DNA of 64,000 nt from Cryobacterium sp. N22 (GTDB taxonomy: Bacteria; Actinomycetota; Actinomycetes; Actinomycetales; Microbacteriaceae), in NCBI RefSeq assembly GCF_002929555.1, contig NZ_PJJP01000038.1, forward strand, positions 193,409 to 257,408, written 5' to 3'. The notes beneath the pieces were generated by a model that was not told where the DNA came from, did not search any database, and was given only the letters and a program-made list of their open reading frames with translations. The translations under genes and the position numbers were made by a program. Each line of letters opens with the position of its first letter. Positions within the stretch are counted from its first letter, which is position 1. Below are positions 2,593 through 50,190 of this stretch, piece after piece.

Positions 2593-3564
2593 ATGCCCAC
2601 GATTCCTGTTCTCCTCGACGTCGACACCGGCGTCGATGACGCCCTCGCCATCCTGTTCGCCGTCGCCCACCCCGACATCGAGGTGCTCGGCATCAGCTGC
2701 GTCGCCGGCAATGCTTCGCTCGAGCGGGTCGTGGAGAACACCCTGCGGATCCTCGACGTCGCTGGCGCCCCCGACATCCCCGTGGCCGCCGGCGCCCGCC
2801 GACCGCTGATCTCGCCTGCCCGCAGCGCGTCGCACGTGCACGGCGAGGGCGGCCTGGGCACCGTGCACCTGCCGCCGGGCGAGCGCACCCCCGAGCCGGT
2901 CAGTGCGGTGGAGCTGATGCGCCGGCTCATCACCGACAGCCCCCGCCCGGTGACCGTGGTGGCCCTGGCCCCGCAGACCAACCTGGCGCTGCTGCTGCGC
3001 CAGTACCCCGACCTGGCCGAGAACATCGAGCGAATCGTGTTCATGGGAGGCTCGGCCAGCGTGGGCAACGCCACCGCCGTGGCCGAGTTCAACGTGTGGC
3101 ACGACCCCGAGGCGGCGGCGATCGTGCTCGACGCGGGCATCCCCACCTTCATGTACGGGCTGGACGTCTTCAACCAGGTCAGCGTAGACCGCGACGTCGC
3201 CGCCGCGCTGGAGGCCGGCGACTCCGGCTACGGGCGGGTGGTGGGCGCGCTGCTGGCGAACCGGGTGGCCCGCAGCGAGAACAGCGCGGCCGAGTACACC
3301 GGGCTGATCGGTGACGCCGGGGCGATCTGCGCGCTGGTCGACCCGGATGCGCTGACCACCCGGCTGCTACGCGTGCGGGTGGAGCTCACCGGGTACGGTC
3401 GCGGCCAGACCATCGTGGACCAGCGCCACCGGGTGGGCGAAGACATCGTGCACGGCACCGCCGGCACCTGGGAGGTCGTGGAGGTGGCCCTGGACGTGGA
3501 CGCCCCACGCTTCGCGCGCCTGTTCCTCGACACCCTGGGCCTGTCCTCCCCCCTCGCGAACTGA
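2593..3564 (+). CDS. Inosine/uridine-preferring nucleoside hydrolase family protein
   Basis: A 323-residue member of the IUNH family, which hydrolyses the N-glycosidic bond of ribonucleosides to ribose and free base in the cytoplasm. The calcium- and ribose-binding signature DVDTGVDDALA is at residues 9-19. Further family landmarks are the VALAPQTNLAL segment and a central FMGGSA motif. The gene is probably leaderless. Its last two codons and TGA stop lie inside a palindromic repeat element (CGCGAACTGA), so the C-terminus may have been altered by that element. It is divergent from the sugar ABC operon; a shared role in nucleoside or ribose salvage is possible but unproven. Confidence 0.88.
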   Translation: MPTIPVLLDVDTGVDDALAILFAVAHPDIEVLGISCVAGNASLERVVENTLRILDVAGAPDIPVAAGARRPLISPARSASHVHGEGGLGTVHLPPGERTPEPVSAVELMRRLITDSPRPVTVVALAPQTNLALLLRQYPDLAENIERIVFMGGSASVGNATAVAEFNVWHDPEAAAIVLDAGIPTFMYGLDVFNQVSVDRDVAAALEAGDSGYGRVVGALLANRVARSENSAAEYTGLIGDAGAICALVDPDALTTRLLRVRVELTGYGRGQTIVDQRHRVGEDIVHGTAGTWEVVEVALDVDAPRFARLFLDTLGLSSPLAN

Positions 3565-3614
3565 GAGAAAAGCCCCAAAAACTCGCCCGCGAAGGTGCTT
3601 ATCTCACAGTTCGC
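3555..3614. repeat. GCGAACTGTGAG palindromic element, copy A
   Basis: Imperfect inverted repeat. The left arm is CGCGAACTGAGAGAAAAGCC and the right arm is the complement of CGCGAACTGTGAGATAAGC. It lies between convergent genes (nucleoside hydrolase and Nudix-like protein) and probably acts as a bidirectional terminator. The left arm contains the TGA stop of the nucleoside hydrolase. The AAAGC arm comes first, the same orientation as copies D and E. Confidence 0.8.
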
Positions 3615-3631
3615 GGATGAGGGGCGGCGGG

Positions 3632-4219
3632 TCAGCGCAGCGCGCCGACCGAGGCCAGGGCCATGCGGAGGAGGCCGCCGCGGCCGCCTTCCATCTCGGC
3701 CGAGACGGCGTCGGTGGCCGCCTCCTCCGGGGTCATCCAGGTGACCTCGAGGGCATCCTGGCGGGGGTCGCAGGTGCCGGTGACGGGCACGACGTAGGCC
3801 AGCGACACGGCGTGCTGGCGGTCATCCGTGAACGCGGTGATGCCGGGCATCGGGAAGTACTCGGCGACCGAGTACGGCACCGGGCTCGGCGGCAGCTGCG
3901 GGAACGCCATCGGGCCGAGGTCCTTCTCGAGGTGCCGGAACAGCGCGTCGCGCAGGGTCTCGCCGTAAAGCACGCGGCCGGAGACCAGGGTGCGGGTCAT
4001 CTTGCCCTCCGGGGTGGCGCGCAGCAGCACGCCGACCTCGACGACCTGGCCCAGCCCGTCGACCCGCACGGGCACGGCCTCGACGTACAGCAGGGGCAGC
4101 CGCTGGCGGATCTCGGCGAGCTCGATGTCGCTCAGCCAACCCGGGTTCGAGTTGGGCGGTGGTGCGTCATCCCCGCCAGGCGTCCAGTCCGGATCGGGGT
4201 CAGGGGTGCGCACGCTCAT
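3632..4219 (-). CDS. Nudix-fold protein with degenerate Nudix box (DUF4916-like)
   Basis: A 195-residue protein with a Pro/Asp-rich N-terminus and a Nudix-like core. A Nudix-box-like helix is visible around GRVLYGETLRDALFRHLEKD. The spacing G-x5-E-x7-R is kept, but the catalytic RExxEE part reads RHLEKD, so the metal-binding glutamates are largely replaced. This matches the actinobacterial NUDIX-family group annotated as DUF4916. Pyrophosphohydrolase activity is therefore doubtful; ligand binding without hydrolysis is an alternative. It converges on the nucleoside hydrolase with a palindromic element between them. Confidence 0.7.
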   Translation of the reverse strand: MSVRTPDPDPDWTPGGDDAPPPNSNPGWLSDIELAEIRQRLPLLYVEAVPVRVDGLGQVVEVGVLLRATPEGKMTRTLVSGRVLYGETLRDALFRHLEKDLGPMAFPQLPPSPVPYSVAEYFPMPGITAFTDDRQHAVSLAYVVPVTGTCDPRQDALEVTWMTPEEAATDAVSAEMEGGRGGLLRMALASVGALR

Positions 4220-4284
4220 AGTTCATTCTCACTCACGAGAGCGGTGGATGCACCACCGGGGTCCGCGAGTCCGGTCGCGCACAC

Positions 4285-4349
4285 CCCGCGAACTGTGAGC
4301 TAAGCACCACCCCGGGCGCGTTTTTGGGCCTTTTCTCTCAGTTCGCGGG
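4285..4349. repeat. GCGAACTGTGAG palindromic element, copy B
   Basis: Left arm CCCGCGAACTGTGAG (4285-4299) pairs with CTCTCAGTTCGCGGG (4335-4349); the inner parts TAAGCACC and GGCCTTTT also pair partly. The orientation is opposite to copy A, with the TAAGC arm first. Unusually for this family it lies in a divergent gap, between the starts of the Nudix-like gene and the esterase gene, so it is not simply a terminator of a neighbour. Confidence 0.8.
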
Positions 4350-4433
4350 ACCCCAGCGCACCGCGGCGCGGGCGTGGAAGGATTGAGGGAGTCGGCGCGC
4401 ACCTGGGCCGACCTGAACGTGAGGAACCGACAC

Positions 4434-5102
4434 ATGGCCACCAGCATCCGCCCAGAGCCGATCGACCCGGCCGCCGTGCTGTGGTCGGCCGCCGCACCGG
4501 ACCGGGTGGGCCGCCCGCTGCTGCTGGTGCTGCACGGCTACGGGTCGACCGAGGGCGACCTGTTCTCGCTCGCCCCGCACCTGCCGTTGCAGCCGACGAT
4601 CGCGGCGCTGCGGGCGCCGCTGCAAGCCGGCCAGGGCTGGTCGTGGTTTCCCATCGGGGTGCCCGGCGACCCCGTCGGCGACGCTCTCGACGCGGCAGCG
4701 CTCGGCATCATCGAGTGGCTCGACGCCCTGCCGGAGCAGCCCACGTCCATCGGCCTACTCGGCTTCTCGCAGGGCGGCGCCATGACGCTGCAGCTGATGC
4801 GGCACGCGCCGGAGCGGTTCGCGTTCGCGGTGCAGCTGTCGGGGTTCATCGGCAGCGGCACGCATCCGGGTGACGCACGGCTGGCCGAGCTGGCGCCGCC
4901 GGTGTTCTGGGGCCGCGGCACCCTGGACCCCGTGATCCCCGAGGGGGCGGTCGCCCGCACCCAGGCGTGGCTGCCGACGCACTCCACGCTCACCGAGGGC
5001 ATCTACGAGGGAATGGGTCACTCCATCTCGCAGGCCGAACTCGGCGAGATCGTCGCGTTCCTGCGCGAACAGTACGCGGCTCCGGCGGTGCCGACCGCCT
5101 GA
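4434..5102 (+). CDS. Phospholipase/carboxylesterase family alpha/beta hydrolase
   Basis: A 222-residue cytoplasmic alpha/beta hydrolase of the carboxylesterase/acyl-protein-thioesterase family. The oxyanion segment LVLHGYGS is near residue 31. The nucleophile elbow GFSQGG gives Ser112, and Asp165 (GTLDPVIP) and His196 (GMGHS) complete the triad. The start was taken at the ATG with GAGGAA just upstream rather than 60 bases earlier. It appears monocistronic. The stop lies inside an 8-bp tandem repeat and is followed by a palindromic repeat. The natural ester substrate is unknown. Confidence 0.85.
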   Translation: MATSIRPEPIDPAAVLWSAAAPDRVGRPLLLVLHGYGSTEGDLFSLAPHLPLQPTIAALRAPLQAGQGWSWFPIGVPGDPVGDALDAAALGIIEWLDALPEQPTSIGLLGFSQGGAMTLQLMRHAPERFAFAVQLSGFIGSGTHPGDARLAELAPPVFWGRGTLDPVIPEGAVARTQAWLPTHSTLTEGIYEGMGHSISQAELGEIVAFLREQYAAPAVPTA

Positions 5103-5124
5103 CCGCCTGACCGCCTGACCGCCT
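5093..5124 (+). repeat. Tandem octamer (GACCGCCT) x4
   Basis: Four exact copies of GACCGCCT run head to tail across the esterase stop codon. Each junction creates CTGA, so the repeat carries successive TGA triplets in shifting frames. It is a likely site of slippage and length variation. Confidence 0.9.
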
Positions 5125-5130
5125 TGACGA

Positions 5131-5198
5131 CGAGCTGCCCCCGAACGGACGAATTGCCCCGTCCCAACGGAGCAACTCGTCCGGGGCGGGGCAACTCG
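5131..5198. repeat. GACGAGTTGCCCC palindromic element, copy 1
   Basis: A long imperfect inverted repeat. The left arm begins CGAGCTGCCCCCGAACGGAC and pairs with the right arm ending CCGGGGCGGGGCAACTCG. It lies between the convergent esterase and DUF5997 genes and resembles the element at 38842-38906. Probably a bidirectional terminator that belongs to a repeat family. Confidence 0.75.
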
Positions 5199-5213
5199 GT
5201 GAAAAAGGTCGAG

Positions 5214-5654
5214 CTAGGAGCGCTTGCGGGCGGCCTGCTCGTTTTGGGCGGCGAAGCGCTCGGCGTGCGCCTTCTTGCGGGCCTTCTCGGCGTCGCGGTC
5301 CTTCACGCGGATCTGCTCCTCGCGCACCTCGAACTGGGTGGCGCGCTCGGTGACGAGCCAGGCCGGCGGCTGCTGCAGCAGTGCCTGGATCTCGGCGGTG
5401 GTCAGCGGCTCGGTGACCTCGCCGCGCACCAGGCCCGAGATCGACACGCCGAGCTTGGCGGCGACGACCTGCTTGGGGTGCGGGCCGTTGGCGCGCAGCT
5501 CGGTGAGCCACTCCGGCGGGTTGGCCTCGAGGGCGGCCAGCTCGGTGCGGGACACCGGCGTGGACTGGAACTCCTCGGGTGCTGCTTCGAGCAGAATCCC
5601 GAGCTTCTGGGCAGCCGTGGCCGGCTTCATGGTCTGGGGCTTCTTCTCGCTCAT
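5214..5654 (-). CDS. DUF5997 family protein
   Basis: A 146-residue soluble protein conserved in Actinobacteria (DUF5997). A central helix-rich segment (KQVVAAKLGVSISGLVRGEV) looks like a helix-turn-helix. The C-terminus is a strongly charged Lys/Glu/Arg helix, possibly a coiled coil. It is divergent from a gene for a LysR-type effector domain that lacks its own DNA-binding domain; the pairing suggests, without proof, that the two work together. A -10-like hexamer TACGCT lies exactly six bases before the ATG, so it is probably leaderless. Confidence 0.75.
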   Translation of the reverse strand: MSEKKPQTMKPATAAQKLGILLEAAPEEFQSTPVSRTELAALEANPPEWLTELRANGPHPKQVVAAKLGVSISGLVRGEVTEPLTTAEIQALLQQPPAWLVTERATQFEVREEQIRVKDRDAEKARKKAHAERFAAQNEQAARKRS

Positions 5655-5785
5655 GGTTCCAGCGTATAGCCTGAGAGCACTATGGTTTCGGTGTCCTGCG
5701 CCCGAACACCGCCAAAACGGCCCGTCGCCGGCACTTCACGCCTGCCCGCGCAGCCACCGCCCACACTGATTTTGCACACGAGAGG

Positions 5786-6583
5786 ATGCCGGTGACCTTT
5801 TCCATTGCCTTCGTCGCCGGGGTCACCCCCACCAAATGGACTCGCATTTGGGCCGAGCGGCGCCCGGAGGTCGAACTCTCGGTCTTCCGCACCAGCATCG
5901 CCGATCAGGAGGCCGTGCTGCGGGACGGCCGCGCCGACGTGAGCCTGGTGCGCCTGCCCATCGATGAAGACGGCCTCAGCCTGATCAACCTGTACAACGA
6001 GATCCCCGTGGTGGTCGTGGCCAAGGATCATTTCCTGGCCGACGCCGACAGCGTGGTCGTGGCCGACCTGGTCGACGAGCACCTGCTACAGGATCCCGAC
6101 GAGATCCCCGAGTGGCGCGATGCGGCCGTGGAGGTGCGCGACGGCAGCCGCCGCCCGCTGCCGCCGATGCGTGACATGGACGAGACCATGGAACTGGTCG
6201 CCGCCGGCGTGGGCATCGTCATCGTGCCGCACTCGGTGGCCCGCCTGCACAGCCGCAAAGATGTCGTCTCCAAGCCGGTGGAGGACACCGCAGAGAGCCG
6301 GATCGCGCTGGCCTGGCGCACGGTGGACACCACGCCCGACGTGGAGGAGTTCATCGGCATCGTGCGTGGCCGCACCCCGGACAGCTCGCGCACCAACGCG
6401 GTGGCGGCCGGCGACGAGCCCGTGAAGAAGGAAAAGAAGACCGCGAAGGCCAAGGCCGCCGCCAAGGCCGTGCGTGCGGCCGCGGCCGCCGCGAAACCGG
6501 CCACCGCGCGCAAGACGCAGAGCGCCGGTCGCACCCGCAACTCCCCCAGCCCGCAGGCCGGCAAGCGCCGCGGCGGTCGCTGA
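5786..6583 (+). CDS. LysR-type substrate-binding-domain protein without HTH, basic C-terminal tail
   Basis: A 265-residue protein whose first ~210 residues match the LysR effector-binding fold: TFSIAFVAGVTP, an alternating beta/alpha pattern, and VAAGVGIVIVPHSVARL near the end. No N-terminal winged helix precedes it. From about residue 213 it changes to a Lys/Ala-rich tail (KKEKKTAKAKAAAKAVRAA), like histone-type DNA- or RNA-binding tails. An in-frame GTG six bases downstream (5792) has a better-placed AGAGGA. It is divergent from DUF5997. It may sense a ligand and bind DNA through the basic tail or through its partner. Confidence 0.75.
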   Translation: MPVTFSIAFVAGVTPTKWTRIWAERRPEVELSVFRTSIADQEAVLRDGRADVSLVRLPIDEDGLSLINLYNEIPVVVVAKDHFLADADSVVVADLVDEHLLQDPDEIPEWRDAAVEVRDGSRRPLPPMRDMDETMELVAAGVGIVIVPHSVARLHSRKDVVSKPVEDTAESRIALAWRTVDTTPDVEEFIGIVRGRTPDSSRTNAVAAGDEPVKKEKKTAKAKAAAKAVRAAAAAAKPATARKTQSAGRTRNSPSPQAGKRRGGR

Positions 6584-6585
6584 GC

Positions 6586-6650
6586 GCCCCGAACTGTGAG
6601 TTAAGCACCTATCCGGGCGTGTTTTCGGTGCTTTTCTCTCAGTTCGCGGG
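6586..6650. repeat. GCGAACTGTGAG palindromic element, copy C
   Basis: Left arm CCCGAACTGTGAGTTAAGCA pairs with the right arm GTGCTTTTCTCTCAGTTCG. The TAAGC arm comes first, as in copy B. It lies between the convergent LysR-domain gene and the GyrI-like gene, and is a probable bidirectional terminator. Confidence 0.8.
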
Positions 6651-6655
6651 AAGGT

Positions 6656-7342
6656 TCAGACGCGGGAGACCGGCTGCCGCACCACGGTCTTGAGCTTCCC
6701 CGGCGCGGTCTTGCGCGGGTCACCCAGGTACACCTCATGGTGCCGGTCGCGCTCGCGCAGGCCCGCCTGGGGCAGCACCTCGCCGTGCAGCCGGGCCAGT
6801 GCCGGGGCCTCGTCGTCGTACGAGCCCACGTGCAGCAGTTGCGCGCAGAGGCCCTCGTCGAGCCGCTCGATACGCAGAAGGTCCAGGGCCGGCAGCGCCT
6901 TCTTCTTGGCTCGCGCCGCCGTGACGGCCTCCTCGATCTCCGCGTCGCTCACCCAGTCGGGCTGGCTGATCATCATGGTCCAGCTCCACGCTGCCTTGTT
7001 GCGCGCGCTGAACACGGATGCGTCGTCGGCGTACCAGAGCCCCTCCAGCGGTCCCACCACCAGATCGCGGCCGCCGCCGCGCTTGCTGGTGAACTTCACC
7101 GTGTACGCCACCGCGTAGAGCGCCTCGACGGCCTCGACGTACGCGGTCGCCGTGTTCGGGTTGCCCGACCCGGCCACCGCCAGGAAACGTTGCGGCGGCA
7201 CCACCAGCGTCTCCCAGTCCCGGTTCTTCGGCGCGTACAGGGCCCGCAGCTCGCGCTTCACGTCGTACGGCGCGGCTCCGCCGGCTGACGCGGTGTCGAC
7301 GCCCGGTGTTGTCGCGGCATCCGCCACCTTCTCGGTCACCAC
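6656..7342 (-). CDS. GyrI-like small-molecule-binding domain protein
   Basis: A 228-residue stand-alone protein of the GyrI-like/SOUL-related ligand-binding superfamily. Typical segments are YDVKRELRALYAPKNRDWETLVVPPQRFLAVAG in two adjacent blocks, a Trp-rich middle, and a late HHEVYLGDPRKT strand. Relatives bind or hydrolyse small, often toxic cyclic or cyclopropanoid molecules. It is the last gene of a five-gene operon starting with an ABC exporter, starting three bases after the preceding VOC gene. Two consecutive GTG codons are possible starts. A detoxification or drug-sensing role is inferred from context. Confidence 0.75.
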   Translation of the reverse strand: MVTEKVADAATTPGVDTASAGGAAPYDVKRELRALYAPKNRDWETLVVPPQRFLAVAGSGNPNTATAYVEAVEALYAVAYTVKFTSKRGGGRDLVVGPLEGLWYADDASVFSARNKAAWSWTMMISQPDWVSDAEIEEAVTAARAKKKALPALDLLRIERLDEGLCAQLLHVGSYDDEAPALARLHGEVLPQAGLRERDRHHEVYLGDPRKTAPGKLKTVVRQPVSRV

Positions 7343-7345
7343 GGT

Positions 7346-7735
7346 TCAGTTCTGCAGCACGGAGAGGATGTTGCCGGCCGGGTCGGTGAACCAGGCGATC
7401 CGCGGCCCTCCGCCACCGCTCGCGATGCCGCGCGCGTCCTGCTCGAATCCGTCGTACCGGAGAAATTCGACGCCGCGTTCGGCGAGCACGTCCACGGTCT
7501 GGTCGATGTCGTCCACCTCGAGGTTGAGGATGGTGAACACCGCAGGGGTGTGGTCCTCCTTCGGGTAGACGAAGACGTCGGCCCCACCGGGCAGGGTCAG
7601 GCGCAGCGTCCCCATTCCGCCGTCGCCGATGTCGAGGCCGAGCACCTCGCGGTAGAACGTGCCGGCGGCGTCGATGTCGGGCACCGCGAATCCGGTGAAG
7701 CCGTGTTTGTACGTCACGGGGATTGTTGTGACCAT
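7346..7735 (-). CDS. VOC family protein (glyoxalase/bleomycin-resistance type), paralogue 2
   Basis: A 129-residue single-domain VOC protein with paired beta-alpha-beta-beta-beta modules: GFTGFAVPDIDAAGTFYREV at the start and IAWFTDPAGNILSVLQ at the end. Start chosen at the ATG preceded by AAGGAGAC; a longer GTG start would overlap the upstream stop. It is clearly a duplicate of the neighbouring VOC gene (same length, same landmarks). The family includes drug-binding, metal-dependent isomerase and dioxygenase members; nothing here fixes the reaction. Confidence 0.82.
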   Translation of the reverse strand: MVTTIPVTYKHGFTGFAVPDIDAAGTFYREVLGLDIGDGGMGTLRLTLPGGADVFVYPKEDHTPAVFTILNLEVDDIDQTVDVLAERGVEFLRYDGFEQDARGIASGGGGPRIAWFTDPAGNILSVLQN

Positions 7736-7755
7736 GGTCGTCTCCTTCTCTGGGC

Positions 7756-8142
7756 TCACTCCTGCATGATGGCGATGATGTTTCCGGCCGGGTCGGCGAT
7801 CCAGCCGCCGGTCGGCATCCCGCCGCCGCGCGAGATACCTCGCTCATCTTGCCCGAATCCTTCGTAGCGCAGCATGTCCACGCCACGTTCGGCCAACGCA
7901 TCCACTGCCTGCTCAATGTCGGGAACCGAGAGGTTGAGGACTGTGAACACCGCGGGCTGGTGGTCTTCCTTGTCGTAGATGATCACCCCGGTGCCGCCGG
8001 GCAGGGTGAGCTGCAGCATTCCCATCACATCGGAGACGTCAAGTCCGAGCACGTCTCCGTAGAAGTTGCGAGCGACCTCCAGGTCTGGCACGGCGAATCC
8101 GCCGAATCCGCGCTGGACGCTGAGTTTCGTTGATGGTGCCAT
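7756..8142 (-). CDS. VOC family protein (glyoxalase/bleomycin-resistance type), paralogue 1
   Basis: A 128-residue VOC protein with GFGGFAVPDLEVARNFYGDV near the N-terminus and GGWIADPAGNIIAIMQE at the end. It shares most conserved positions with the next gene, so the pair arose by tandem duplication and may form a heterodimer. It has a good ribosome site (GAGGGAG) and sits 53 bp after the ABC permease gene, in the same direction as the whole TetR-linked operon. Drug sequestration or modification is a reasonable but untested guess. Confidence 0.82.
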   Translation of the reverse strand: MAPSTKLSVQRGFGGFAVPDLEVARNFYGDVLGLDVSDVMGMLQLTLPGGTGVIIYDKEDHQPAVFTVLNLSVPDIEQAVDALAERGVDMLRYEGFGQDERGISRGGGMPTGGWIADPAGNIIAIMQE

Positions 8143-8195
8143 GATCGACTCCCTCTGCTCGGTGTTGCGCTCCCTGCTTCTGGACTGCGCCCAGG

Positions 8196-9038
8196 TCAGC
8201 GGGAGCTGATCGAGGCGAACTTACGAATGCACAATGGCACAAACACCACGAGCAGCACAACGACCCCGATGAGCACGGTCAGCACCGGATTCTGCAGCGT
8301 CCAGACATCCGGCACCGGAGCGCTGCCCTCGTTGCCGAAGAGCTCGCGGGCGGCCTGCACGAGAGCGGACACCGGGTTGAGTTCGGCGAAGACGCGCAAC
8401 GGGTCCGGCAGGGTCTCGATCGGCACGAACGCGTTGGAGATGAAGGTGATCGGGAACAGGATGATGAACGACGCGTTGTTGATCACCTCGGGTGAGCGCA
8501 CGCTCATGCCCAGCAGCGCCATCACCCAACTGAAGGCGTAGCTGAACAGCAGCAGCAGCCCGAGGCCGGCGAAGAATTCGCCCACCGAGGAGTTCACCCG
8601 CCAGCCGACCAGGAAGCCGGTGGCCATCATGATGATCATCGAAATGGTGTTGAGCACCAGGTCCCCGTTGGTGCGGCCGACCAGCACCGCCGAGGAGCTC
8701 ATCGGCAGGCTGCGGAACCTGTCGATGATGCCGTCCTTGAGGTCCTGGGCCATGGCCGACCCCGAAAAGGTGGAACCGAACACCACGGTCTGGGCGAAGA
8801 TGCCGGCCATCAGGAACTGCACGTAGTCGGTGCCCTGCACGCTGATGGCCCCGCCGTAGACCTGGCTGAACAGCAGCACGAACATGATCGGCTGGATGAC
8901 CGCGAACACGAGCATGTCCGGGGTGCGCTTGATCTTGATGAGGTTGCGCTTGGTGGTCGTCCAGCCGTCCGAGTACCACAGCGACAACGGGTTCCAGGTG
9001 GGTGGTGCCGGGGCTGGCCTGGTGGCGGTGGCCGTCAT
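8196..9038 (-). CDS. ABC-2 type drug exporter permease (DrrB-like)
   Basis: A 280-residue inner-membrane protein with a short cytoplasmic N-terminus and about six spans. The ABC-2 signature appears as NNASFIILFPITFISNAFVPIETLPDPLRVFAELNP in adjoining blocks near residues 190-225. It resembles DrrB of the daunorubicin exporter. Its start overlaps the ATPase gene by four bases (ATGA), which indicates a coupled heteromeric exporter. Confidence 0.87.
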   Translation of the reverse strand: MTATATRPAPAPPTWNPLSLWYSDGWTTTKRNLIKIKRTPDMLVFAVIQPIMFVLLFSQVYGGAISVQGTDYVQFLMAGIFAQTVVFGSTFSGSAMAQDLKDGIIDRFRSLPMSSSAVLVGRTNGDLVLNTISMIIMMATGFLVGWRVNSSVGEFFAGLGLLLLFSYAFSWVMALLGMSVRSPEVINNASFIILFPITFISNAFVPIETLPDPLRVFAELNPVSALVQAARELFGNEGSAPVPDVWTLQNPVLTVLIGVVVLLVVFVPLCIRKFASISSR

Positions 9039-10030
9039 TTCACCTTCTCCATCTTCTCGTCTTCGTTCTCGCCCGCCGCCATGTCGGCCTTGTGCCCGGT
9101 GAGCTTGAGGAACACGTCATCGAGGGTGGGCCGGCGCATGCCGGCGTCGTGCAGTTCGATTCCCGCGGTACGCAGGTCGGCGAGCACGTGCTGCAGCGCC
9201 GGCGGGCCGTCGGTCACGGCCACATCGATGCCGCGGCCGTCGCTGGAGACCTGCGGTTCGCCCGCGCCATACCGGGCCAGCACCTCGCGGGCGGCGTTGG
9301 CGTCGGCGGCGTCGACCAGGGCGATCACCACCCGGTGACCGCCGATCTGCGCCTTGAGCTCGTCGGAGGTGCCCTCGGCGATGACCTTGCCGTAATCGAT
9401 GACCGCGATGCTGTCGGCGAGCTGGTCGGCCTCCTCGAGGTACTGGGTGGTGAGCAGCACCGTGGTGCCGTCGTCGACGAGCTTGTTGATCACGCCCCAC
9501 AGCGCCATCCGGCTGCGCGGGTCGAGCCCGGTGGTCGGTTCGTCGAGGAAGAGGATCTTGGGGTTGAACACCAGGGCACCGGCCAGGTCGATGCGTCGCC
9601 GCATGCCGCCGGAGAAGCCCTTCACCGGACGGTTGCCGGCCGCGGTGAGTTCGAACAGGTCGATCAGCTCCTGCGCCCGCCGCCGGGAGGCCGCACCGCC
9701 GAGGTGGTAGAGCCGGCCCACCATTTCGAGGTTCTCGAAGCCGGTGAGGTTCTCGTCGACGGCCGCGTACTGGCCGGACACCCCGATGATGCTGCGCACG
9801 GCCTTCGGGTCGTCGAGCACGTTGATGCCGTCCACGACCGCAGTGCCGGTGTCGGGCCGGATGAGGGTGGTCAGGATCTTGACCACCGTGGTCTTGCCCG
9901 CACCGTTGGGCCCGAGGATCGCCTTGACCGTGCCGCGCGGCACGGTGAGGTCGAGTCCGGCGAGCGCGTGCACCGGTCCGGTCTTGGATTTGTAGGTCTT
10001 GGTGAGCCCTGAGGCTTCGATGATTGTCAT
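9035..10030 (-). CDS. ABC exporter ATPase (DrrA-like, daunorubicin-resistance family)
   Basis: A 331-residue ATPase with Walker A GPNGAGKTT (residues 40-48), signature FSGGMRRR in place of LSGGQ, Walker B ILFLDEPTTGLD and a switch region LLTTQYLEEAD. The C-terminal extension after the nucleotide-binding domain, with the RPTLDDVFLKLTG motif, is characteristic of the DrrA subfamily. First gene of the operon, 84 bp from the divergent TetR gene with an operator-like palindrome between them. Confidence 0.9.
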   Translation of the reverse strand: MTIIEASGLTKTYKSKTGPVHALAGLDLTVPRGTVKAILGPNGAGKTTVVKILTTLIRPDTGTAVVDGINVLDDPKAVRSIIGVSGQYAAVDENLTGFENLEMVGRLYHLGGAASRRRAQELIDLFELTAAGNRPVKGFSGGMRRRIDLAGALVFNPKILFLDEPTTGLDPRSRMALWGVINKLVDDGTTVLLTTQYLEEADQLADSIAVIDYGKVIAEGTSDELKAQIGGHRVVIALVDAADANAAREVLARYGAGEPQVSSDGRGIDVAVTDGPPALQHVLADLRTAGIELHDAGMRRPTLDDVFLKLTGHKADMAAGENEDEKMEKVK

Positions 10031-10063
10031 GCCATGCCCCTGCCGTCGGATGGCTATGCTGGT

Positions 10064-10756: not shown

Positions 10757-10761
10757 CCCGC

Positions 10762-44453: not shown

Positions 44454-44533
44454 GTGACTCTCCCTCAGATCTCGGTTCAGCCTACCGCCCGGCGACCTTT
44501 GGTCCCCACCGCAGGGCGCTGGCCCGGAGACGC

Positions 44534-44565
44534 AGAATGGCCCCGGCGTCACGCCGGGGCCATTC
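44534..44565 (-). terminator. Intrinsic-type hairpin after rpmJ
   Basis: GAATGGCCCCGGCGT and its complement form a stem of about 14 bp with a very short loop. It lies in the ~190-bp gap between rpmJ and the GGDEF-EAL gene, both minus strand. The only adjacent T-rich sequence (TTCTCTTA) follows it on the plus strand. Confidence 0.65.
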
Positions 44566-44642
44566 TCTTAGGGCTGGAAATGCCGACTCGCCAATCGAGC
44601 GGCGGCACGGATCGGCCGGACCCGCACGCCGCACCGACGGGA

Positions 44643-44765
44643 CTAACCCTGGCGAGCCTTGAATCGGGGGTTCAACTTATTGATGACGAATGTGCGCCCA
44701 TGGCGCCGCACCGTCTGTGAACCCTGCATCTTCTTCATCGAACCCAGTGAATTACGTACCTTCAT
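44643..44765 (-). CDS. rpmJ: 50S ribosomal protein L36 (bL36), cysteine-free paralogue
   Basis: A 40-residue protein starting [15 protein letters not shown] and ending [12 protein letters not shown], an unmistakable bL36 of the second type. The zinc-binding cysteines and histidine set of canonical L36 are absent, so this is the zinc-independent form that can replace the zinc-containing form under zinc limitation. A strong AAAGGAG lies six bases before the ATG. Such paralogues are commonly controlled by Zur, but I saw no convincing Zur box upstream. Confidence 0.93.
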
Positions 44766-44813
44766 CCTGGCTCCTTTCCGTCGGTTAACCAGACCAACAC
44801 AAAACAGCCGAAA

Positions 44814-45290
44814 TTATTCCGATTCGGTGGCCTCCGGTGCGTTGAATACCCGGCGCGGGCCGGCGCCGTCGGTGCGCAGGCGGTCATCGGAGTTCACCAC
44901 GGCGCACCGGGTTTGCGACAGGCAGCCGCAGCCGATGCAGCCGGTGAGCTCGGCCTGCATCCGTTCGAGCACGGCTCGTTGGCGCGCGAGGTGCTCCCCC
45001 CAGGTGGCGGAAATGGTGCTCCATTCGGCCCGGCTCGGTGGGCGGCTGTCCGGCAGGTCCTTGAGCATCTCGGCGACCTCGGCGAGTGAGATCCCGTAGC
45101 GCACCGAAACTTGAATGAGGGCGATGCGCCGCAGCACGTGCCGCGGAAAGAGGCGCGCGTTGCCGTTCGAGCGCAGCGCCGGGATCAGTCCCAGCGTCTC
45201 GTAGTAGCGCACGGTGGAGACCGGAACTCCGGCGCGGGCGGCAACCTGCCCGATCGGCAGAAGATCATTGCTGGACAAGTGCTCTGACAC
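44814..45290 (-). CDS. soxR: Redox-sensitive transcriptional activator SoxR
   Basis: A 158-residue MerR-family sensor. The N-terminal winged helix starts with LPIGQVAARAGVPVSTVRYY; a dimerisation helix follows. The [2Fe-2S] ligands are Cys118, Cys121, Cys123 and Cys129 (CIGCGCLSQTRC), the exact SoxR spacing. The GTG start has AAGGAGAAGG upstream. Divergent from sodA, with an 18-bp perfect SoxR-type palindrome between them. Confidence 0.95.
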   Translation of the reverse strand: MSEHLSSNDLLPIGQVAARAGVPVSTVRYYETLGLIPALRSNGNARLFPRHVLRRIALIQVSVRYGISLAEVAEMLKDLPDSRPPSRAEWSTISATWGEHLARQRAVLERMQAELTGCIGCGCLSQTRCAVVNSDDRLRTDGAGPRRVFNAPEATESE

Positions 45291-45306
45291 TGGGCCTTCT
45301 CCTTGA

Positions 45307-45324
45307 TCTCAAGTGCACTTGAGA
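45307..45324 (+). promoter_or_regulatory. SoxR box in the sodA promoter
   Basis: TCTCAAGTGCACTTGAGA is a perfect palindrome that fits the E. coli SoxR site (CTCAAGT-n2-ACTTGAG). It lies between a possible -35 TTGATC (45303-45308) and -10 TATCGT (45328-45333) with a 19-bp spacer, the long spacing that MerR-family activators correct by twisting DNA. Confidence 0.85.
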
Positions 45325-45327
45325 CGA

Positions 45328-45333
45328 TATCGT
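45328..45333 (+). promoter_or_regulatory. -10 hexamer of the sodA promoter, leaderless
   Basis: TATCGT ends six bases before the ATG at 45340. No ribosome site is present, so the mRNA is predicted to start at or next to the start codon. Confidence 0.6.
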
Positions 45334-45339
45334 AAACAA

Positions 45340-45963
45340 ATGACCGCATATACGCTTCCCCCGCTGACCTATGACTATGCCGCCCTCGAGCCCGCCATCA
45401 GCGGGCGCATTATGGAGCTCCACCACAGCAAGCACCACCAGGCCTACGTGACCGGTGCCAACACCGCACTCGACCAGCTCGCTGAGGCCCGCGAATCCGG
45501 CAACCTCACCTTCGTCAACAAGCTGCAGAAGGACCTCTCCTTCAACCTCGGCGGCCACGTCAACCACTCGATCTTCTGGACCAACATGTCCCCGAACGGT
45601 GGCGACAAGCCCACCGGTGAGCTCGCTGCCGCAATCGATGACACTTTCGGCTCGTTCGAGAAGTTCCAGGCGCACTTCACCGCCGTCGCCATGGGCGTTC
45701 AGGGCTCCGGCTGGTCGATCCTCGCCTGGGACACCCTGGGCCAGCAGCCGATCATCGTGCAGCTCTACGACCAGCAGGGCAACCTGCCCGCCGGCATCGT
45801 ACCGCTGCTCATGCTCGACGTCTGGGAGCACGCCTACTACCTCGACTACCAGAACGTGCGCGCCGACTACGTCAAGGCGTTCTGGACCGTCACCGACTGG
45901 GAGAACGTCTCCGCTCGCTTCACGAAGGCGCGCGACACCACCTCCGGCCTCATCACGCTGTAG
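45340..45963 (+). CDS. sodA: Superoxide dismutase (Mn/Fe type)
   Basis: A 207-residue cytoplasmic enzyme converting superoxide to oxygen and hydrogen peroxide. Metal ligands are visible as His28 ([10 protein letters not shown]), the His of [10 protein letters not shown], and Asp and His in [20 protein letters not shown] is the second conserved region. The start at ATG 45340 gives the family-standard N-terminus ([15 protein letters not shown]). Controlled by the divergent SoxR through the palindrome directly upstream. Ends at a palindromic element. Confidence 0.96.
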
Positions 45964-45984
45964 CACCAACCAGCGCGCCCGCCT

Positions 45985-46045
45985 CGCGAGCCGTGAGAAA
46001 AGCCCCGAAAACCAGCGTTTTTCGGGGCTTAGCTCACGGCTCGCG
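45985..46045. repeat. GCGAACTGTGAG palindromic element, copy D (compensated variant)
   Basis: Left CGCGAGCCGTGAG (45985-45997) pairs perfectly with CTCACGGCTCGCG (46033-46045); the inner AAGCCCCGAAAA pairs with TTTTTCGGGGCTT. Relative to the other copies both arms changed AAC-TG to AGC-CG together, keeping the stem. It lies between convergent sodA and the ABC permease gene. Same orientation as copies A and E. Confidence 0.88.
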
Positions 46046-46059
46046 TGCGTGTGGCGGGG

Positions 46060-48627
46060 TCAGTCCGCCGACACGGCCTGCAGCACGGGCAACCGCGCCG
46101 CGTGGATCGCCGGCCACAGGGCAGCCAGCACTCCGACCAGGGCGGCGACCCCGAGCATCGACGCGAGCTGGCCCCAGGGTATGGCGAGCTCGGTGAGCCC
46201 GATCTCGGTGAAGACCGCGGGCATCAGCGACGCGATGCCCACCCCGACGGCCATGCCCAGGACGGTGCCGAACAGGGCCGTGAGGACCGATTCGATGGTG
46301 ATGATGCCGGCCAGTTGCATCCGGCCCAGGCCCACCGCCCGCATGAGCCCGATCTCCCGGGTGCGTTCGATCACCGACAGCGCCAGGGTGTTCACGATGC
46401 CGAGGATCGCGATGATGATCGACAACGCCAGCATCGCGTAGAGGATGCCGAGGATCTGGTCGACCTGCCCCGCCAAACGGCCCGCGAACTCCTCCTTGTC
46501 GAGCACCGACAGCACGACGTATGGCGCGGCCGCCTCGGTCAGTTCGTCACGGACCTCGGCCGGCGAGGCGTTCGCCGCCGAGGTGATCAGCAGCGAGTCG
46601 ATCGCGGCCTGCGACGCCGGCACGATGCGGTCGAAGACGTCGTCCGGCATGATGATCGGCGCGCCGATCATGGCGGTGTCGACGATCGCGCTGATCGGGG
46701 CGGATGCCCGCCCGGCCTCCGTCGTGAAGGTCACCTCGTCGCCCACCGACCAGCCGTGGTCGTCTGCGGCGCTTCGCTGAACGGCAACCTGCCCCGACGC
46801 GAAGCCGGCCAGCGTGCCCTCGACGGCGTCGATGTCGAGGGTCTGCCCGAGCGCGGCGGGCGGCAGTGCCACCACGATGAGAGACCGCTCGGCGACGGCG
46901 TCACCGGCGGCCGGAGCCAGCATCGCCGGGCCGTAGCGCAGCTCCTCGACGGAGTCCACCGCACCCAGGGCGCGCAGGTCGGCCACCACACCGGCCGGCA
47001 CCACCCCGGCGGCGGACTGCACCGAGAAGTCCGCGATCCAGCCGTCGTCCACAATCGCGCGGGTCGAGACCGTCGCCGAGGCGGCGAGCACCGAGGCCGC
47101 TCCCACCAGGGCCATGCCGATCATGAGCGCCCCCGCGGTGTTCGCGGTGCGGCGGGGGTTGCGGATCACATTGCCGCGAGCCAGCCGGCCCAGCGGTGCG
47201 ACGGCCACGACGAAGACCGCGGCCAGGGCGCTGAGCGAGTAGCGGGCGATCACCGGGGCCAGGACCAGCACCCCGACGACGACCCCGGCGGCGCCGAGGC
47301 CCAGCAGTGCCGGGCCGTCGGGGTCGGGCCGGGACCACGCGGCGACCAGGCCGGCCAGGCCGGCGACGGTGAGGGCGGATCCGACGATGGCCCGCAGCCG
47401 AAGCGACTTGGACCTGGCACCACCGGCCTCGCGCATGGCCTCCACCGGCGGGGTGAGCGCCGCCCGGCGGGCGGGCAGCGCCGCCGCCGCGATGCTCACC
47501 AGGGTGCCCACCAGCAGCGAGATCACCACGGTGGCGGGGTCGAGCGGGATGCTGCCGGACAGGTCCATGCCGATCTGGCCGACCGCCATGCGCACAAGCG
47601 ACACCAGGCCGAGGCCGGCGGCGATGCCGAGTGCGGAGCCGGCCAGACCCACCACCGCGGCCTGGATGAGGATGGAAGCGAACACCTGGCCGGGCGAAGC
47701 GCCGACGGCGCGCAGGAGGGCGAATTCACGCATCCGCTGCTGCACCGACATCGCGAAGGTGTTGGAGATGATGAAAGCACCGACGAACAGCGAGATCCCG
47801 GCGAAGACCAGCATGAACGTCTGAACGAATCCGAGCATGTCGTTGATCTCTGACGTGACCTCGGTGCGCATGGCGGTGCCGCTGACGGTCTCGAGCCCGG
47901 TGGCGTCGGCGGCGGCCAGGGCCGCCTCGATCCGGTCGACGAGGGTCTGCTCGTCCACCCCGGCGTCCCCGTAGACGTCGATGCTCGCCACCAGGCCGTC
48001 GGCCGCGTAGACGGCGGTGGAGGTGGGCACATCCAGGAAGACGATGGTGGCGCCGGCCATCGGCGCACCGAGCGACACCTCCCCCACAACCGAGACGGTC
48101 TGCACCTCACCGGCGAGCACGACCGAGGTCTCGTCGCCGACGGTCAGGCCCGACGACTCGAGGGTGGCCGATTCCAGCGCGATCTCCGTCGGGCCGACCG
48201 GTGTCTGCCCGGCGACGATGTCGAGGGTGTCGTCGTCGGGGTAAAGCGCCATCCCGAAGCTGGGTGCCTGCGAGCTCACCACGGCCGTGCCGTCGGCGCC
48301 GACAAGAACGATGGGTCCGGAGACCGCGGGCAGGGCGTGCCGCACACCATCGACGGTGTTGAGGGTCTGGGCAAGGTCGGCCGGGATGGCCTCCCGCACC
48401 TCAGCGGCCGAGCTTCCGGGCTGGGCGGCACTGGCGGCGGGCTCGCTGCCGCGCACGTAGACATCCGCCTGCATCGAGCTGGCCACGATGCCGGAGAAGG
48501 TGGATCCCATCATGGTGCGAAGCGACAGGGTGCCCGCCACGAACGCGACCCCGAGGGTCACCGCCAGCAGCGACAACAGAAAGCGCACCAGGTGGGCGCG
48601 GATGCCGCGCAACGCGACCCTGGTCAT
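46060..48627 (-). CDS. Large FtsX-type ABC transporter permease (two FtsX units)
   Basis: An 855-residue exporter-type permease. It has an N-terminal span (FLLSLLAVTLGVAFVAGTLS), a large outer domain, a first FtsX unit with three spans (VGAFIISNTFAMSVQQRMRE, then LRAVGASPGQVFAS), further spans, a second outer domain and a C-terminal FtsX unit (ERTREIGLMRAVGLGRMQLA). This duplicated layout is typical of actinobacterial lipoprotein- or drug-exporter permeases. Its start overlaps the ATPase gene by four bases. Confidence 0.9.
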   Translation of the reverse strand: MTRVALRGIRAHLVRFLLSLLAVTLGVAFVAGTLSLRTMMGSTFSGIVASSMQADVYVRGSEPAASAAQPGSSAAEVREAIPADLAQTLNTVDGVRHALPAVSGPIVLVGADGTAVVSSQAPSFGMALYPDDDTLDIVAGQTPVGPTEIALESATLESSGLTVGDETSVVLAGEVQTVSVVGEVSLGAPMAGATIVFLDVPTSTAVYAADGLVASIDVYGDAGVDEQTLVDRIEAALAAADATGLETVSGTAMRTEVTSEINDMLGFVQTFMLVFAGISLFVGAFIISNTFAMSVQQRMREFALLRAVGASPGQVFASILIQAAVVGLAGSALGIAAGLGLVSLVRMAVGQIGMDLSGSIPLDPATVVISLLVGTLVSIAAAALPARRAALTPPVEAMREAGGARSKSLRLRAIVGSALTVAGLAGLVAAWSRPDPDGPALLGLGAAGVVVGVLVLAPVIARYSLSALAAVFVVAVAPLGRLARGNVIRNPRRTANTAGALMIGMALVGAASVLAASATVSTRAIVDDGWIADFSVQSAAGVVPAGVVADLRALGAVDSVEELRYGPAMLAPAAGDAVAERSLIVVALPPAALGQTLDIDAVEGTLAGFASGQVAVQRSAADDHGWSVGDEVTFTTEAGRASAPISAIVDTAMIGAPIIMPDDVFDRIVPASQAAIDSLLITSAANASPAEVRDELTEAAAPYVVLSVLDKEEFAGRLAGQVDQILGILYAMLALSIIIAILGIVNTLALSVIERTREIGLMRAVGLGRMQLAGIITIESVLTALFGTVLGMAVGVGIASLMPAVFTEIGLTELAIPWGQLASMLGVAALVGVLAALWPAIHAARLPVLQAVSAD

Positions 48628-49445
48628 CGCCGGGCGCCGTCGTGCTCGTGCTCGGCCTCGGTCTCGTCGCCCATCGACCGCATGACGTCGAGCACCGACG
48701 CCTGGGTGGGGTCGGTGAGTTCGTGCACGAGCCGGCCGTCGGCGAGGAACAGCACCCGGTGGGCGTAGGCCGCCGCCCGGGCGTCGTGGGTCACCATGAC
48801 GACCGTCTGGCCGAGGTCGTCGACCGACCCGCGCAGGAAACGCAGCAGGTCACCGGCGGATTTCGAGTCGAGGTTGCCGGTGGGCTCGTCGGCGAACACC
48901 ACCGCCGGCCGGGCCACCAGGGCTCGGGCGCAGGCCACGCGCTGCTGCTGACCACCGGAGAGTTCGCTGGGCCGGTGGTGCAGGCGGTCCTCGAGCCCGA
49001 CGGCCGCGACGATCGCGGCAAAATGCGCCCGGTCTACCGGGCGCCGGGCGATGTCCAGCGGCAGGGTGATGTTCTCGGCGGCAGTGAGCGTGGGAATCAG
49101 GTTGAACGACTGGAAGATGAAGCCGAGCCGGGTGCGGCGAAGCGCCGTGAGCTGACGCTGTGACATCCGCCCCACGTTCATGTCGTCCACGATCACGGTG
49201 CCGGCGGTGACGGTGTCCAGTCCCGCCATGCAGTGCATCAGCGACGACTTGCCCGACCCGGACGGGCCCATGATCGCCGTCAGTTCGCCTCGGGCGAAGT
49301 CCACGTCGATGCCGTCCAGGGCGCGCACCTCGGTCTCGCCGGTGCCGTAGGTCTTGACCAGGCCCCTGGCGTACGCGATCACGGATGCCGGCGGTGCTGA
49401 AAGCGAGCGCGCCGGGTGGTTCGAGGTGAGCGTGTGGGCGGTCAT
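48624..49445 (-). CDS. ABC transporter ATPase (MacB/LolD-type)
   Basis: A 273-residue ATPase with a ~25-residue N-terminal extension, Walker A GPSGSGKSS, FQSFNLIPTLTAAENITLPL, signature LSGGQQQRV, Walker B AVVFADEPTGNLDS and VMVTHDARAAAYA. The ATG has AAGGA upstream; sequence further upstream in frame was not included. Forms a two-gene unit with the large permease. Confidence 0.92.
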   Translation of the reverse strand: MTAHTLTSNHPARSLSAPPASVIAYARGLVKTYGTGETEVRALDGIDVDFARGELTAIMGPSGSGKSSLMHCMAGLDTVTAGTVIVDDMNVGRMSQRQLTALRRTRLGFIFQSFNLIPTLTAAENITLPLDIARRPVDRAHFAAIVAAVGLEDRLHHRPSELSGGQQQRVACARALVARPAVVFADEPTGNLDSKSAGDLLRFLRGSVDDLGQTVVMVTHDARAAAYAHRVLFLADGRLVHELTDPTQASVLDVMRSMGDETEAEHEHDGARR

Positions 49446-49572
49446 GTACGGTCCTTCACTGTCGGAGCGCGGGCGCGCTGGGGTCGATCCCCAGTGTTGC
49501 CCTCTGGCCGCATCGCGGCATCGGGACAAACCCTGACTCGACCCTGAGCGAACCCTGAGTGCCGCCTTCGGG

Positions 49573-50106
49573 CTACCCGGGAAGGTCGTAACGGTGGCGG
49601 ATGTGCCGGCGGTCGGCGCTGGCCTGCCAGAACTCGATCTCGGAGGGCCGCAGCGCGTAGAGCTGCCAGGCCGGGTTCGGTGCCGCATCGGCGGCGGGCC
49701 GTGCGGCCCAGTCCTGGGCGGAGGCTTCGGCCGAGAGCTCGACGACCGGGCCGACCAGTCGCACCTGACGGCCGAGCTGGGACCAGTAGAAGTTCATGGC
49801 TGCCTGCGGGTTGGCCGCCAGCTCACGGCCCTTGCGGGAGGTGCGCGCGGTGGCGAACTGCCAACCGTCGTCGTCGAGGTCTTTGAGGATGAGCATCCGC
49901 GACGACGGCGCCCCCGCCCCGGGCCCGGCGCCGACGGTGGCGAGGCTGAAAGCGTGCGGCTGCCGCACCCCGGCGGCCAGCGCCGCCTCGAACCAGCTGA
50001 GGAACAGCTCCACCGGGTCGGCCGGGGCGGTAGCCGGGTCGAACTTCGGCAGGTCATCGGGAAAGTCGGGCAGGGCACGCAGCCGCGCTCTCAAGGTGTC
50101 ACTCAC
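49573..50106 (-). CDS. Pyridoxine/pyridoxamine 5'-phosphate oxidase family protein
   Basis: A 177-residue FMN-binding split-barrel protein. PSSRMLILKDLDDDGWQF, FATARTSRKGRELAANPQAA and FYWSQLGRQVRLVGPV are the PdxH-type FMN and phosphate contacts. The C-terminal dimerisation segment ends with EFWQASADRRHIRHRY, a near-match to the PdxH C-terminal EFWQG...RLHDR pattern. It is shorter than PdxH and some positions differ, so the true substrate could be another pyridine or flavin compound. GTG 50106 was chosen; the ribosome site is weak. Confidence 0.82.
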   Translation of the reverse strand: MSDTLRARLRALPDFPDDLPKFDPATAPADPVELFLSWFEAALAAGVRQPHAFSLATVGAGPGAGAPSSRMLILKDLDDDGWQFATARTSRKGRELAANPQAAMNFYWSQLGRQVRLVGPVVELSAEASAQDWAARPAADAAPNPAWQLYALRPSEIEFWQASADRRHIRHRYDLPG

Positions 50107-50129
50107 GGTCGCGAGCCTACCCATCCGCC

Positions 50130-50190
50130 CGCGAACCGTGAGCAAAGCACCTAAAACTTGAGATTTCTGGGGCTTAGCTCACAGTTCGCG
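50130..50190. repeat. GCGAACTGTGAG palindromic element, copy E
   Basis: Left CGCGAACCGTGAG (50130-50142) pairs with CTCACAGTTCGCG (50178-50190). It lies between nagA and the oxidase gene, both minus strand. The right arm, read on the minus strand, encodes the last nagA codons and its TAA stop. Orientation as in copies A and D. Confidence 0.82.

What the first reader, a model, noticed from the sequence alone, without database searches (positions are those of the whole stretch)
3555..50190. Five-copy palindromic element GCGAACTGTGAG...CTCACAGTTCGC, both orientations, compensated arms
Copies at 3555-3614, 4285-4349, 6586-6650, 45985-46045 and 50130-50190 share ends GCGAAC(T/C)GTGAG and an inner (T/A)AAGC(A/C)CC. 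One arm consistently carries TAAGC and the other AAAGC, so the element has a direction: copies A, D, E one way, B, C the other. Copy D changed both arms together (GAGCCG against CGGCTC), which preserves pairing and argues for selection on the folded form. Four copies lie at gene 3' ends, one in a divergent gap. Looks like an actinobacterial REP- or MITE-like family doubling as terminators; I know of no description.
Basis: seen in the sequence. Interest (0 to 1): 0.72.

Follow-up and report, generated by a model that had tools for sequence, protein, structure and literature searches.

The report
Dispersed 65-bp palindrome family in Cryobacterium
The five palindromes belong to a family of about 75 similar, 65-base mirror-image sequences that have spread through this bacterium's genome and mostly sit right behind the ends of genes; in related genomes a jumping gene uses their exact centre as a landing site.

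Summary
All five copies are 59-bp palindromes (about 65 bp with YYC/GRR flanks) of a dispersed family. This genome has 76; 33 of 57 genomes of the genus (Cryobacterium) match the covariance model. It is not a set of independent terminators: copies at unrelated loci agree over 56-58 of 59 bp, hypervariable loop included, and identity stops at the element edge. Between species both arms change together (21 of 28 pairs), although in this genome most outer-arm positions vary independently. Copies favour gene 3' ends (33 of 67 convergent against 32 of 215 element-free gaps; 83 of 94 facing gene ends within 22 nt or inside the arm). At sodA the element stands where relatives have a canonical terminator, but U-tract orientation is random and a sister clade lacks the U-tract, so a classical terminator role is only partly supported. 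No RAYT gene was found (0 of 57). The searches made listed no description.

The parts
3556..3614 (+). copy A, 59-bp palindrome; its left arm supplies the stop codon (TGA at arm positions 7-9) of the nucleoside hydrolase gene 2593-3564; convergent
   Evidence: copies at the ortholog site in G203, G186, G166, G150, G153, G189, G192; degenerate in G154, G180; remnant in G190; absent in G165
4288..4346 (-). copy B, 59-bp palindrome in the divergent gap between the NUDIX/DUF4916 gene (3632-4219, -) and a carboxylesterase-like gene (4434-5102, +)
   Evidence: shorter version in G203 and longer in G186
6589..6647 (-). copy C, 59-bp palindrome, convergent between a LysR-substrate-domain gene (ends 6583, +) and a GyrI-like gene (ends 6656, -)
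   Evidence: no element in the orthologous gap of G203, G192, G165, G190; G150, G153, G166 have a different palindrome there
45986..46044 (+). copy D, both arms changed (GCGAGCCGTGAG / CTCACGGCTCGC), at the 3' end of sodA (45340-45963, +), convergent with an FtsX-type permease gene (46060-48627, -)
   Evidence: five relatives have a hairpin + T-run terminator here
50131..50189 (+). copy E, 59-bp palindrome, tandem: overlaps the stop of the amidohydrolase gene (50174-51394, -) and precedes a pyridoxamine-phosphate-oxidase-like gene (49573-50124, -)
   Evidence: ortholog in G186, G166, G189, G192; decayed in G154, G180, G165

Best explanation
This is a largely genus-specific family of miniature, palindromic, dispersed DNA elements, REP/MITE-like in behaviour. 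The unit is YYC + 59 bp + GRR. Its arms are SCGARCYGTGAG (outer 12 bp), then two loose positions, then an inner AAGCMCC-type arm, around a hypervariable loop, at nearly fixed length. Shown: it has been copied to many loci as a unit with sharp ends; within a clade copies are inherited vertically; between two clades positions mostly differ and both arms have shifted together. It lies mostly just behind stop codons and sometimes supplies the stop codon itself. Inferred: there it forms a two-way hairpin at mRNA 3' ends that can take over termination or 3'-end protection (as at sodA), which makes the place a safe harbour. Shown: ends of IS30-family transposons lie at its exact centre in several genomes. 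Inferred, weakest step: its copying is done in trans by an enzyme other than RAYT; the best candidate is the DUF222-HNH gene whose duplicated unit starts with the element.
For: 68 exact 12-mers against 0 control; 73 + 3 copies; 38 copy pairs with at most 2 differences in the 17-nt loop against 0.55 expected from column shuffles, e.g. L198/L199 58 of 59 identical with unrelated flanks; 33 of 57 genus genomes by R1, 48 of 57 with at least one outer-arm match, reversed control 22 in all; cross-species pairing 92.0% against 73.0%, 144 against 53.7 double changes, 0 of 500 shuffles; convergent placement p = 3.6e-11, 83 of 94 facing 3' ends within 22 nt or overlapping, repeated in a second clade, 23 of 44 convergent and 0 divergent; sodA series; arm start 30-31 nt from the IS30 end in 28 of 58 ends, 3-bp duplication GCC at the centre in G188, IS30 model 254.1 bits; DUF222-HNH unit bordered by the element.
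Against: No clean empty site or target-site duplication of the element itself was found, so insertion is inferred from near-identical copies. No Y1/RAYT gene was found, so the mobiliser is unknown. The U-tract does not follow the direction of transcription (9 against 9 in tandem copies) and is missing in clade II. Several orthologous copies decay without compensation. Divergent placements exist (10 of 67) and are not significantly depleted when all gaps are counted (p = 0.15; p = 4e-4 for gaps of 40 nt or more). One of five covariation measures, the number of pair types, is only weakly above shuffles (27 of 500). The DUF222-linked loci were fetched because they hold the element, so unlinked genes of that kind would have been missed.
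Confidence: 0.72

Rival explanations
1. A family of ordinary bidirectional intrinsic terminators (like a genus-specific counterpart of the repeated terminator motif TRIT of mycobacteria, recalled) that look alike through common function, not through copying.
For: Inner hairpin plus GGGGCTTTTCTC resembles a terminator; other genera of the family have AGAAAAGCCCC...GGGGCTTTTCT hairpins (G149, G035, G129); 3'-end placement; sodA replacement.
Against: The outer 12-bp arms, among the most conserved parts, are not needed for a terminator; variable loops are shared between unrelated loci; U-tract orientation random; clade II lacks the U-tract; nearly fixed length.
Confidence: 0.15
2. A classical MITE: a non-autonomous relic of a DDE transposon with terminal inverted repeats.
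For: Short, palindromic, dispersed, sharp ends.
Against: No target-site duplication seen at the sites compared; no larger element with these ends was met: six unpaired half-sites in G172 turned out to be palindromes split by an IS30-family element with unrelated ends. Whole genomes were not searched for such a transposon.
Confidence: 0.12
3. A DNA-level site (for example for a nucleoid or topology protein between convergent genes, as proposed for REP and gyrase; recalled) kept by selection on protein binding.
For: Outer half-sites keep sequence rather than pairing within this genome (pairs 7/53, 9/51, 19/41 vary independently); convergent enrichment; nearly constant spacing of the half-sites.
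Against: Large copy-number differences between relatives, with few or none in many; uncompensated decay at orthologous sites.
Confidence: 0.12

Closest known systems
REP / REPIN elements with RAYT (TnpA-REP) transposases
   Same: Short extragenic palindromes in many copies; IS elements insert at a REP hairpin axis with a 3-bp repeat (ISPsy8 in P. syringae; PMC1525189, abstract and passages read). RAYT genes lie beside REPs (PMC3116915, passages read), as DUF222-HNH genes lie beside this element at the loci seen.
   Different: No Y1/RAYT gene found in 57 of 57 genus genomes; no GTAG or CGTC tag; one 59-65 bp palindrome, longer than the 20-40 bp given for REPs (PMC3733652, start of abstract in the listing, and a word search for six actinobacterial names that found none).
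IS30-family insertion hot spots
   Same: Nearly palindromic preferred targets (PMC9333248, abstract and passages read); here the insertion is at the dyad centre.
   Different: Here the target is a dispersed repeat family, hit at one position in 10 genomes (at most 2 mismatches in the arm) to 13 (at most 3).
REP13E12 / DUF222-HNH repeats of mycobacteria
   Same: Multi-copy, often recombining, no defined function (PMC13061034, a preprint, passages read); REP13E12 is named together with HNH endonuclease/DUF222 (PMC10589994, passages read). The Cryobacterium gene next to the element has DUF222 and HNH domains.
   Different: Association with a dispersed palindrome was not tested in mycobacteria; the link rests on shared Pfam domains only.
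TRIT, a repeated intrinsic terminator motif of mycobacteria (recalled, paper not seen)
   Same: Sequence-conserved hairpin family at 3' ends in an actinobacterium (recalled).
   Different: Outer conserved arms, random U-tract direction, a clade without U-tract.

Membership tests
REP (RAYT-associated) | RAYT / Y1 transposase encoded in the genome | tested here: not met
   PF01797: 0 of 57 genus genomes; rings in 5 of 14 control genomes
REP (RAYT-associated) | GTAG or CGTC tag at one end of the palindrome | tested here: not met
   Flanks of 73 copies are mostly YYC ... GRR
REP (RAYT-associated) | extragenic, many copies, palindromic | tested here: met
   73 copies, 0 called inside a gene in G000 (an earlier, worse caller put 1 inside); 1 of 44 so called in clade II, not verified
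MITE | terminal inverted repeats shared with an autonomous transposon | tested here: inconclusive
   No such transposon met; unpaired half-sites of G172 are IS30-split palindromes; whole genomes not searched for it
MITE | target-site duplication | tested here: inconclusive
   None seen at the sites compared, but spacers of relatives are too diverged for clean empty sites
Intrinsic terminator | G+C-rich hairpin followed by U-tract in the direction of transcription | tested here: not met
   Tandem copies: 9 with, 9 against, 6 symmetric; clade II copies have none
Intrinsic terminator | transcripts end at the site | not testable with these tools
   no RNA data
IS30-family target site | IS30-family transposase in the inserted element and a fixed insertion point | tested here: met
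   NF033563 254.1 bits, cut-off 80, for the IS of G188; arm start 30-31 nt from the IS in 28 of 58 ends
Known Rfam family | match at gathering score | tested here: not met
   0 matches in the window

The most novel reading that the evidence does not exclude
The palindrome family is mobilised by DUF222-HNH nucleases: an actinobacterial counterpart of the REP-RAYT partnership, in which a gene of unknown function that is multi-copy here carries the element at its left border and seeds free copies. Ten loci in four species share the element as the left limit of homology (20 nt outside it 40% identical, element 90%), all in one orientation; at eight of them the gene is in the sequence held, the other two are contig ends that share only the gene-side flank. 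Where the sequence reaches that far, homology ends within 15 nt of the gene's stop codon. One free copy (L024) has the same 17-nt loop as a gene-linked copy (L195).
Probability: 0.15. Interest if true: 0.8.

Novelty: new variant of a known kind. Interest (0 to 1): 0.6.

Why it matters
It is a REP-like population of short palindromes in an actinobacterial genus in which no gene of the RAYT type, thought to spread REPs, was found, so something else should copy it. If the DUF222-HNH link holds, it would give a testable function to a protein family without one. The IS30-family ends at the exact dyad, repeated over 10 or more genomes, show how a transposon can use such palindromes as landing sites behind genes.

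Tried and rejected
RAYT/Y1 as mobiliser: not supported, 0 of 57 genomes. DNA-uptake-signal idea (many unpaired sites): not supported; only 3 of 68 exact 12-mers in this genome are unpaired. Phage or plasmid carriage: 2 half-matches in viral contigs, neither a palindrome; no match in plasmids with one copy as query. Reading six unpaired half-sites of G172 as ends of a parent transposon: rejected, they are IS30-split palindromes. U-tract direction as the functional strand, suggested by a G-U bias at pair 7/53: dropped after orientation proved random in tandem copies. A first gene caller gave wrong frames (copy A called tandem) and was replaced. The stop-codon-supplying variant (A at arm position 9) as an adaptation: 6 of 15 such arms serve as stop, too few to claim. 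A second palindrome hit by IS30 in this genome: no intact copy by an exact pattern in 4 genomes, left open.

Rows dropped: family hits G014 and G140 looked like coding-sequence chance matches by eye, not checked, and were left out of alignment A3, as were best copies not 59 bp long. A3 holds one copy (the best or among the best by model R1) from each of 26 genomes. The first IS-end count examined 53 of 58 matches; the other five were fetched and read later.
Full report
THE OBSERVATION. All are 59 bp. Over 73 copies of this genome, read from both sides, the base outside the end is C in 144 of 146 half-sites and the next two are pyrimidines in 138 and 139 of 146, so the real unit is about 65 bp, YYC-59-GRR. 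The window matches no Rfam family.

NOT CHANCE, NOT LOCAL. The window is contig C17:193409-257408 of a 4.06-Mb genome in 39 contigs. The 12-mer GCGAACTGTGAG occurs 68 times there and its reversed control never; by comparison with the copy list, three of the 68 are unpaired. A covariance model from 24 copies gives 150 strand matches, its scoring cap; a matrix scan of the fetched loci gives 73 distinct 59-bp copies, and three more are 57-58 bp. By the model, 33 of 57 genus genomes have the element (stricter filters, so some weak matches are lost). By the outer arms alone, CYGTGAG-N32..38-CTCACRG, 48 of 57 have at least one match, with 0 to 75 per genome. This pattern finds 50 of the 76 copies here, and its reversed control totals 22 over the 57 genomes, so counts of one to three are not evidence by themselves. 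In a draw of 150 genomes of the family, 11 including this one have a match; most others are weak, several are plain AGAAAAGCCCC...GGGGCTTTTCT hairpins, and two looked like coding sequence.

IT HAS SPREAD BY COPYING. The 17-nt loop is highly variable, yet 38 copy pairs differ in it by at most 2 bases against 0.55 expected from column shuffles. In pairs such as L198/L199 (58 of 59 identical) or L218/L195 (57 of 59) the flanks are unrelated and identity stops at the element edge; a few other pairs are part of longer duplications. This is what a dispersed repeat leaves and what independent terminators would not. Within a clade copies are inherited: sites A, B, C and E have recognisable orthologs with similar loops in several relatives, and 8 of the sites fetched from G201 match sites of G172 with both flanks. 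Between the clades, only one gene cluster of this genome (C27) matched clade II sites on both sides, and a few more places on one side, among 44 clade II copies and 73 copies here (comparison limited to 1.2-1.5 kb of flank). Site C has no element in G203, the best match to this region, nor in G192, G165 and G190; G190 keeps part of an arm at site A, so loss by deletion happens; G150 has an extra copy at site A. No clean empty site with a target duplication was found.

FOLDING. Within this genome, pairs 7/53, 9/51 and 19/41 vary independently; pairs 24/36, 25/35, 27/33 and 5/55 covary (p below 0.01, uncorrected) and 22/38 is borderline (on 24 copies the whole structure is not above shuffles in four of five measures). 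So copy D alone does not prove selection on folding. Across 26 genomes, one copy each, 92.0% of cells pair against 73.0% in shuffles; 21 of 28 pairs have changes on both sides, 144 such cells against 53.7; 0 of 500 shuffles reach these values or the covariation score, 27 of 500 reach the number of pair types (relatedness inflates such figures, and I named the structure after seeing the copies). In clade II (G201, G172) the inner arms read TTTGGCACC/GGTGCCAAA instead of AAGCMCC/GGKGCTT in the 44 copies fetched, both arms together, apart from single-base variants.

WHERE IT SITS. With my own codon-based gene caller, of 67 copies with two called neighbours 33 are convergent, 24 tandem and 10 divergent; 6 are at contig edges. 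Element-free gaps of the loci compared are 32 convergent, 134 tandem, 49 divergent (p = 3.6e-11 for convergent; divergent p = 0.15, or 4e-4 if only gaps of 40 nt or more are compared). Of 94 gene 3' ends facing a copy, 64 lie within 22 nt, 11 farther, and 19 end inside the arm, which then supplies the stop codon (ending at arm position 11 in 9 cases, 9 in 6, 16 in 3, 24 in 1). In 22 of 24 tandem copies the element lies within 17 nt of, or overlaps, the upstream gene's stop. In clade II, 23 of 44 copies are convergent, 20 tandem, 0 divergent, 1 called inside a gene (not verified).

WHAT IT DOES. At the sodA 3' end (copy D; gene named) five relatives (G154, G180, G189, G192, G165) have a G+C hairpin with a T-run, G166 has such a hairpin followed by the element, and G186 and this genome have only the element (judged by eye). 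That is the best evidence that the element can replace a terminator. Against a classical terminator: in tandem copies the TTTT-bearing strand agrees with transcription 9 times and disagrees 9 times, 6 are symmetric; clade II has no U-tract; copies at sites A and E decay without compensation in some relatives (G154, G180, G165). I therefore favour a two-way 3'-end hairpin (termination or protection) as a tolerated, sometimes useful by-product of a spreading element. This step is inferred.

IS30 LANDS IN THE CENTRE. Unpaired half-sites in G172 proved to be palindromes split by an IS. The transposase of a complete copy in G188 is IS30 family (NF033563, 254.1 bits). A pattern for the IS ends, up to 3 mismatches, matches 58 times in 20 of 57 genomes. 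In all 58, read in two rounds, the arm starts 30 or 31 nt from the IS in 28 (24 with at most 2 mismatches, in 10 genomes; 28 in 13 genomes), against 8 hits spread over all other offsets from 14 to 59. Of three complete copies whose flanks I joined, the one in the element (G188, 1,262 bp) has GCC on both sides at the centre of a 59-bp site; one in another palindrome (G190) has CCG on both sides; the third (G175), not in a palindrome, shows CTG and CTA, no repeat. Ten ends, 8 of them in this genome, lie in that second palindrome, at about the same distance; the remaining 20 of 58 ends lie in neither. Insertion at the axis of REP hairpins with a 3-bp repeat is known for ISPsy8 (PMC1525189, passages), so this is a parallel case, not a new principle.

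A GENE LINKED TO IT. Two of the near-identical copies precede a duplicated gene with DUF222 and HNH domains (in L194 the gene is split into two open frames). At ten loci, five of this genome and five from named C. lactosi, C. zongtaii and C. adonitolivorans contigs, the element is the left limit of homology: 20 nt outside it are 40% identical on average, the element 90%, the first 20 nt on the gene side 63% without gaps, and the ten copies point the same way. At eight of the ten the gene is in the sequence held; L001 and L042 are contig ends that share only the gene-side flank. Against the L195 unit, homology of the four others that reach the end (L194, L218, L128, L129) stops within 15 nt of the stop codon. 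RAYT genes neighbour REPs in a similar manner (PMC3116915, passages). The sample is biased, since these loci were fetched for holding the element, and simple co-duplication explains the data equally well. More distant DUF222 genes (26-43% identical) in other fetched stretches are not so placed.

LITERATURE. Searches for the arm sequences (2 listed of 3; 15 listed of 20), for Cryobacterium with palindromic repeats (8 of 8), for MITEs in Microbacteriaceae (none) and for extragenic palindromes in Micrococcales and actinobacteria (15 listed of 40) listed no paper whose title or abstract start points to this family. The one Cryobacterium genome paper checked uses 'palindromic' only for CRISPR. Only open-licence full texts are held.

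VERDICT. A real, dispersed REP-like family in a genus without detectable RAYT; new variant of a known kind. Dispersal and placement are shown, the 3'-end function is inferred, and the mobiliser is open.

Noticed in passing
window 5130-5200; site C in G150, G153, G166 (L235, L236, L237): A second palindromic repeat with CGAGTTGCCCC / GGGGCAACTCG arms; 23 exact arm hits in this genome against 7 in the reversed control, some paired at 38 bp. It occupies the site of copy C in three relatives.
   Followed up: partly
G000 contig ends C5, C6, C10, C11, C17, C20, C38 (L427-L434); G190 (L381): IS30-family ends sit in another palindrome, TTGCGGACTTCCCGCCTTCG, again about 31 nt from the IS; no intact copy was found with an exact pattern in four genomes.
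   Followed up: partly
L226 1-790, L205 1-280: Behind an rrn-type terminator at two contig starts there are many copies of a further repeat, GGTCTCGACAGGCTCGACC and variants, mixed with copies of the element.
   Followed up: no
window 46060-49382: An FtsX-type ABC transporter operon lies between copy D and the oxidase-like gene here; by eye G180 has similar sequence between the oxidase-like gene and the amidohydrolase, and it is missing between the sodA and oxidase-like genes of G186 and G166.
   Followed up: no
G157, G198 site C (L242, L243): A different repeat, GGCGCGAAGCGGCGCAACTGGCGCGC and its complement, several times in the same convergent gap.
   Followed up: no
G155, G156, G159, G163, G167, G177, G178, G184 (L399, L400, L403, L407, L410, L418, L419, L424): Palindromes that keep the outer CCGTGAG/CTCACGG arms but have unlike interiors, several of them less well paired, as if the outer arms were the older unit.
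   Followed up: partly
G161 IS30-family ends (L367, L437-L441, L448): Ends of the same IS type lie in none of the two palindromes; several share CCATTCGACGGA or GCGARAGCGGGTGAATCGTCGG, perhaps other target repeats.
   Followed up: no
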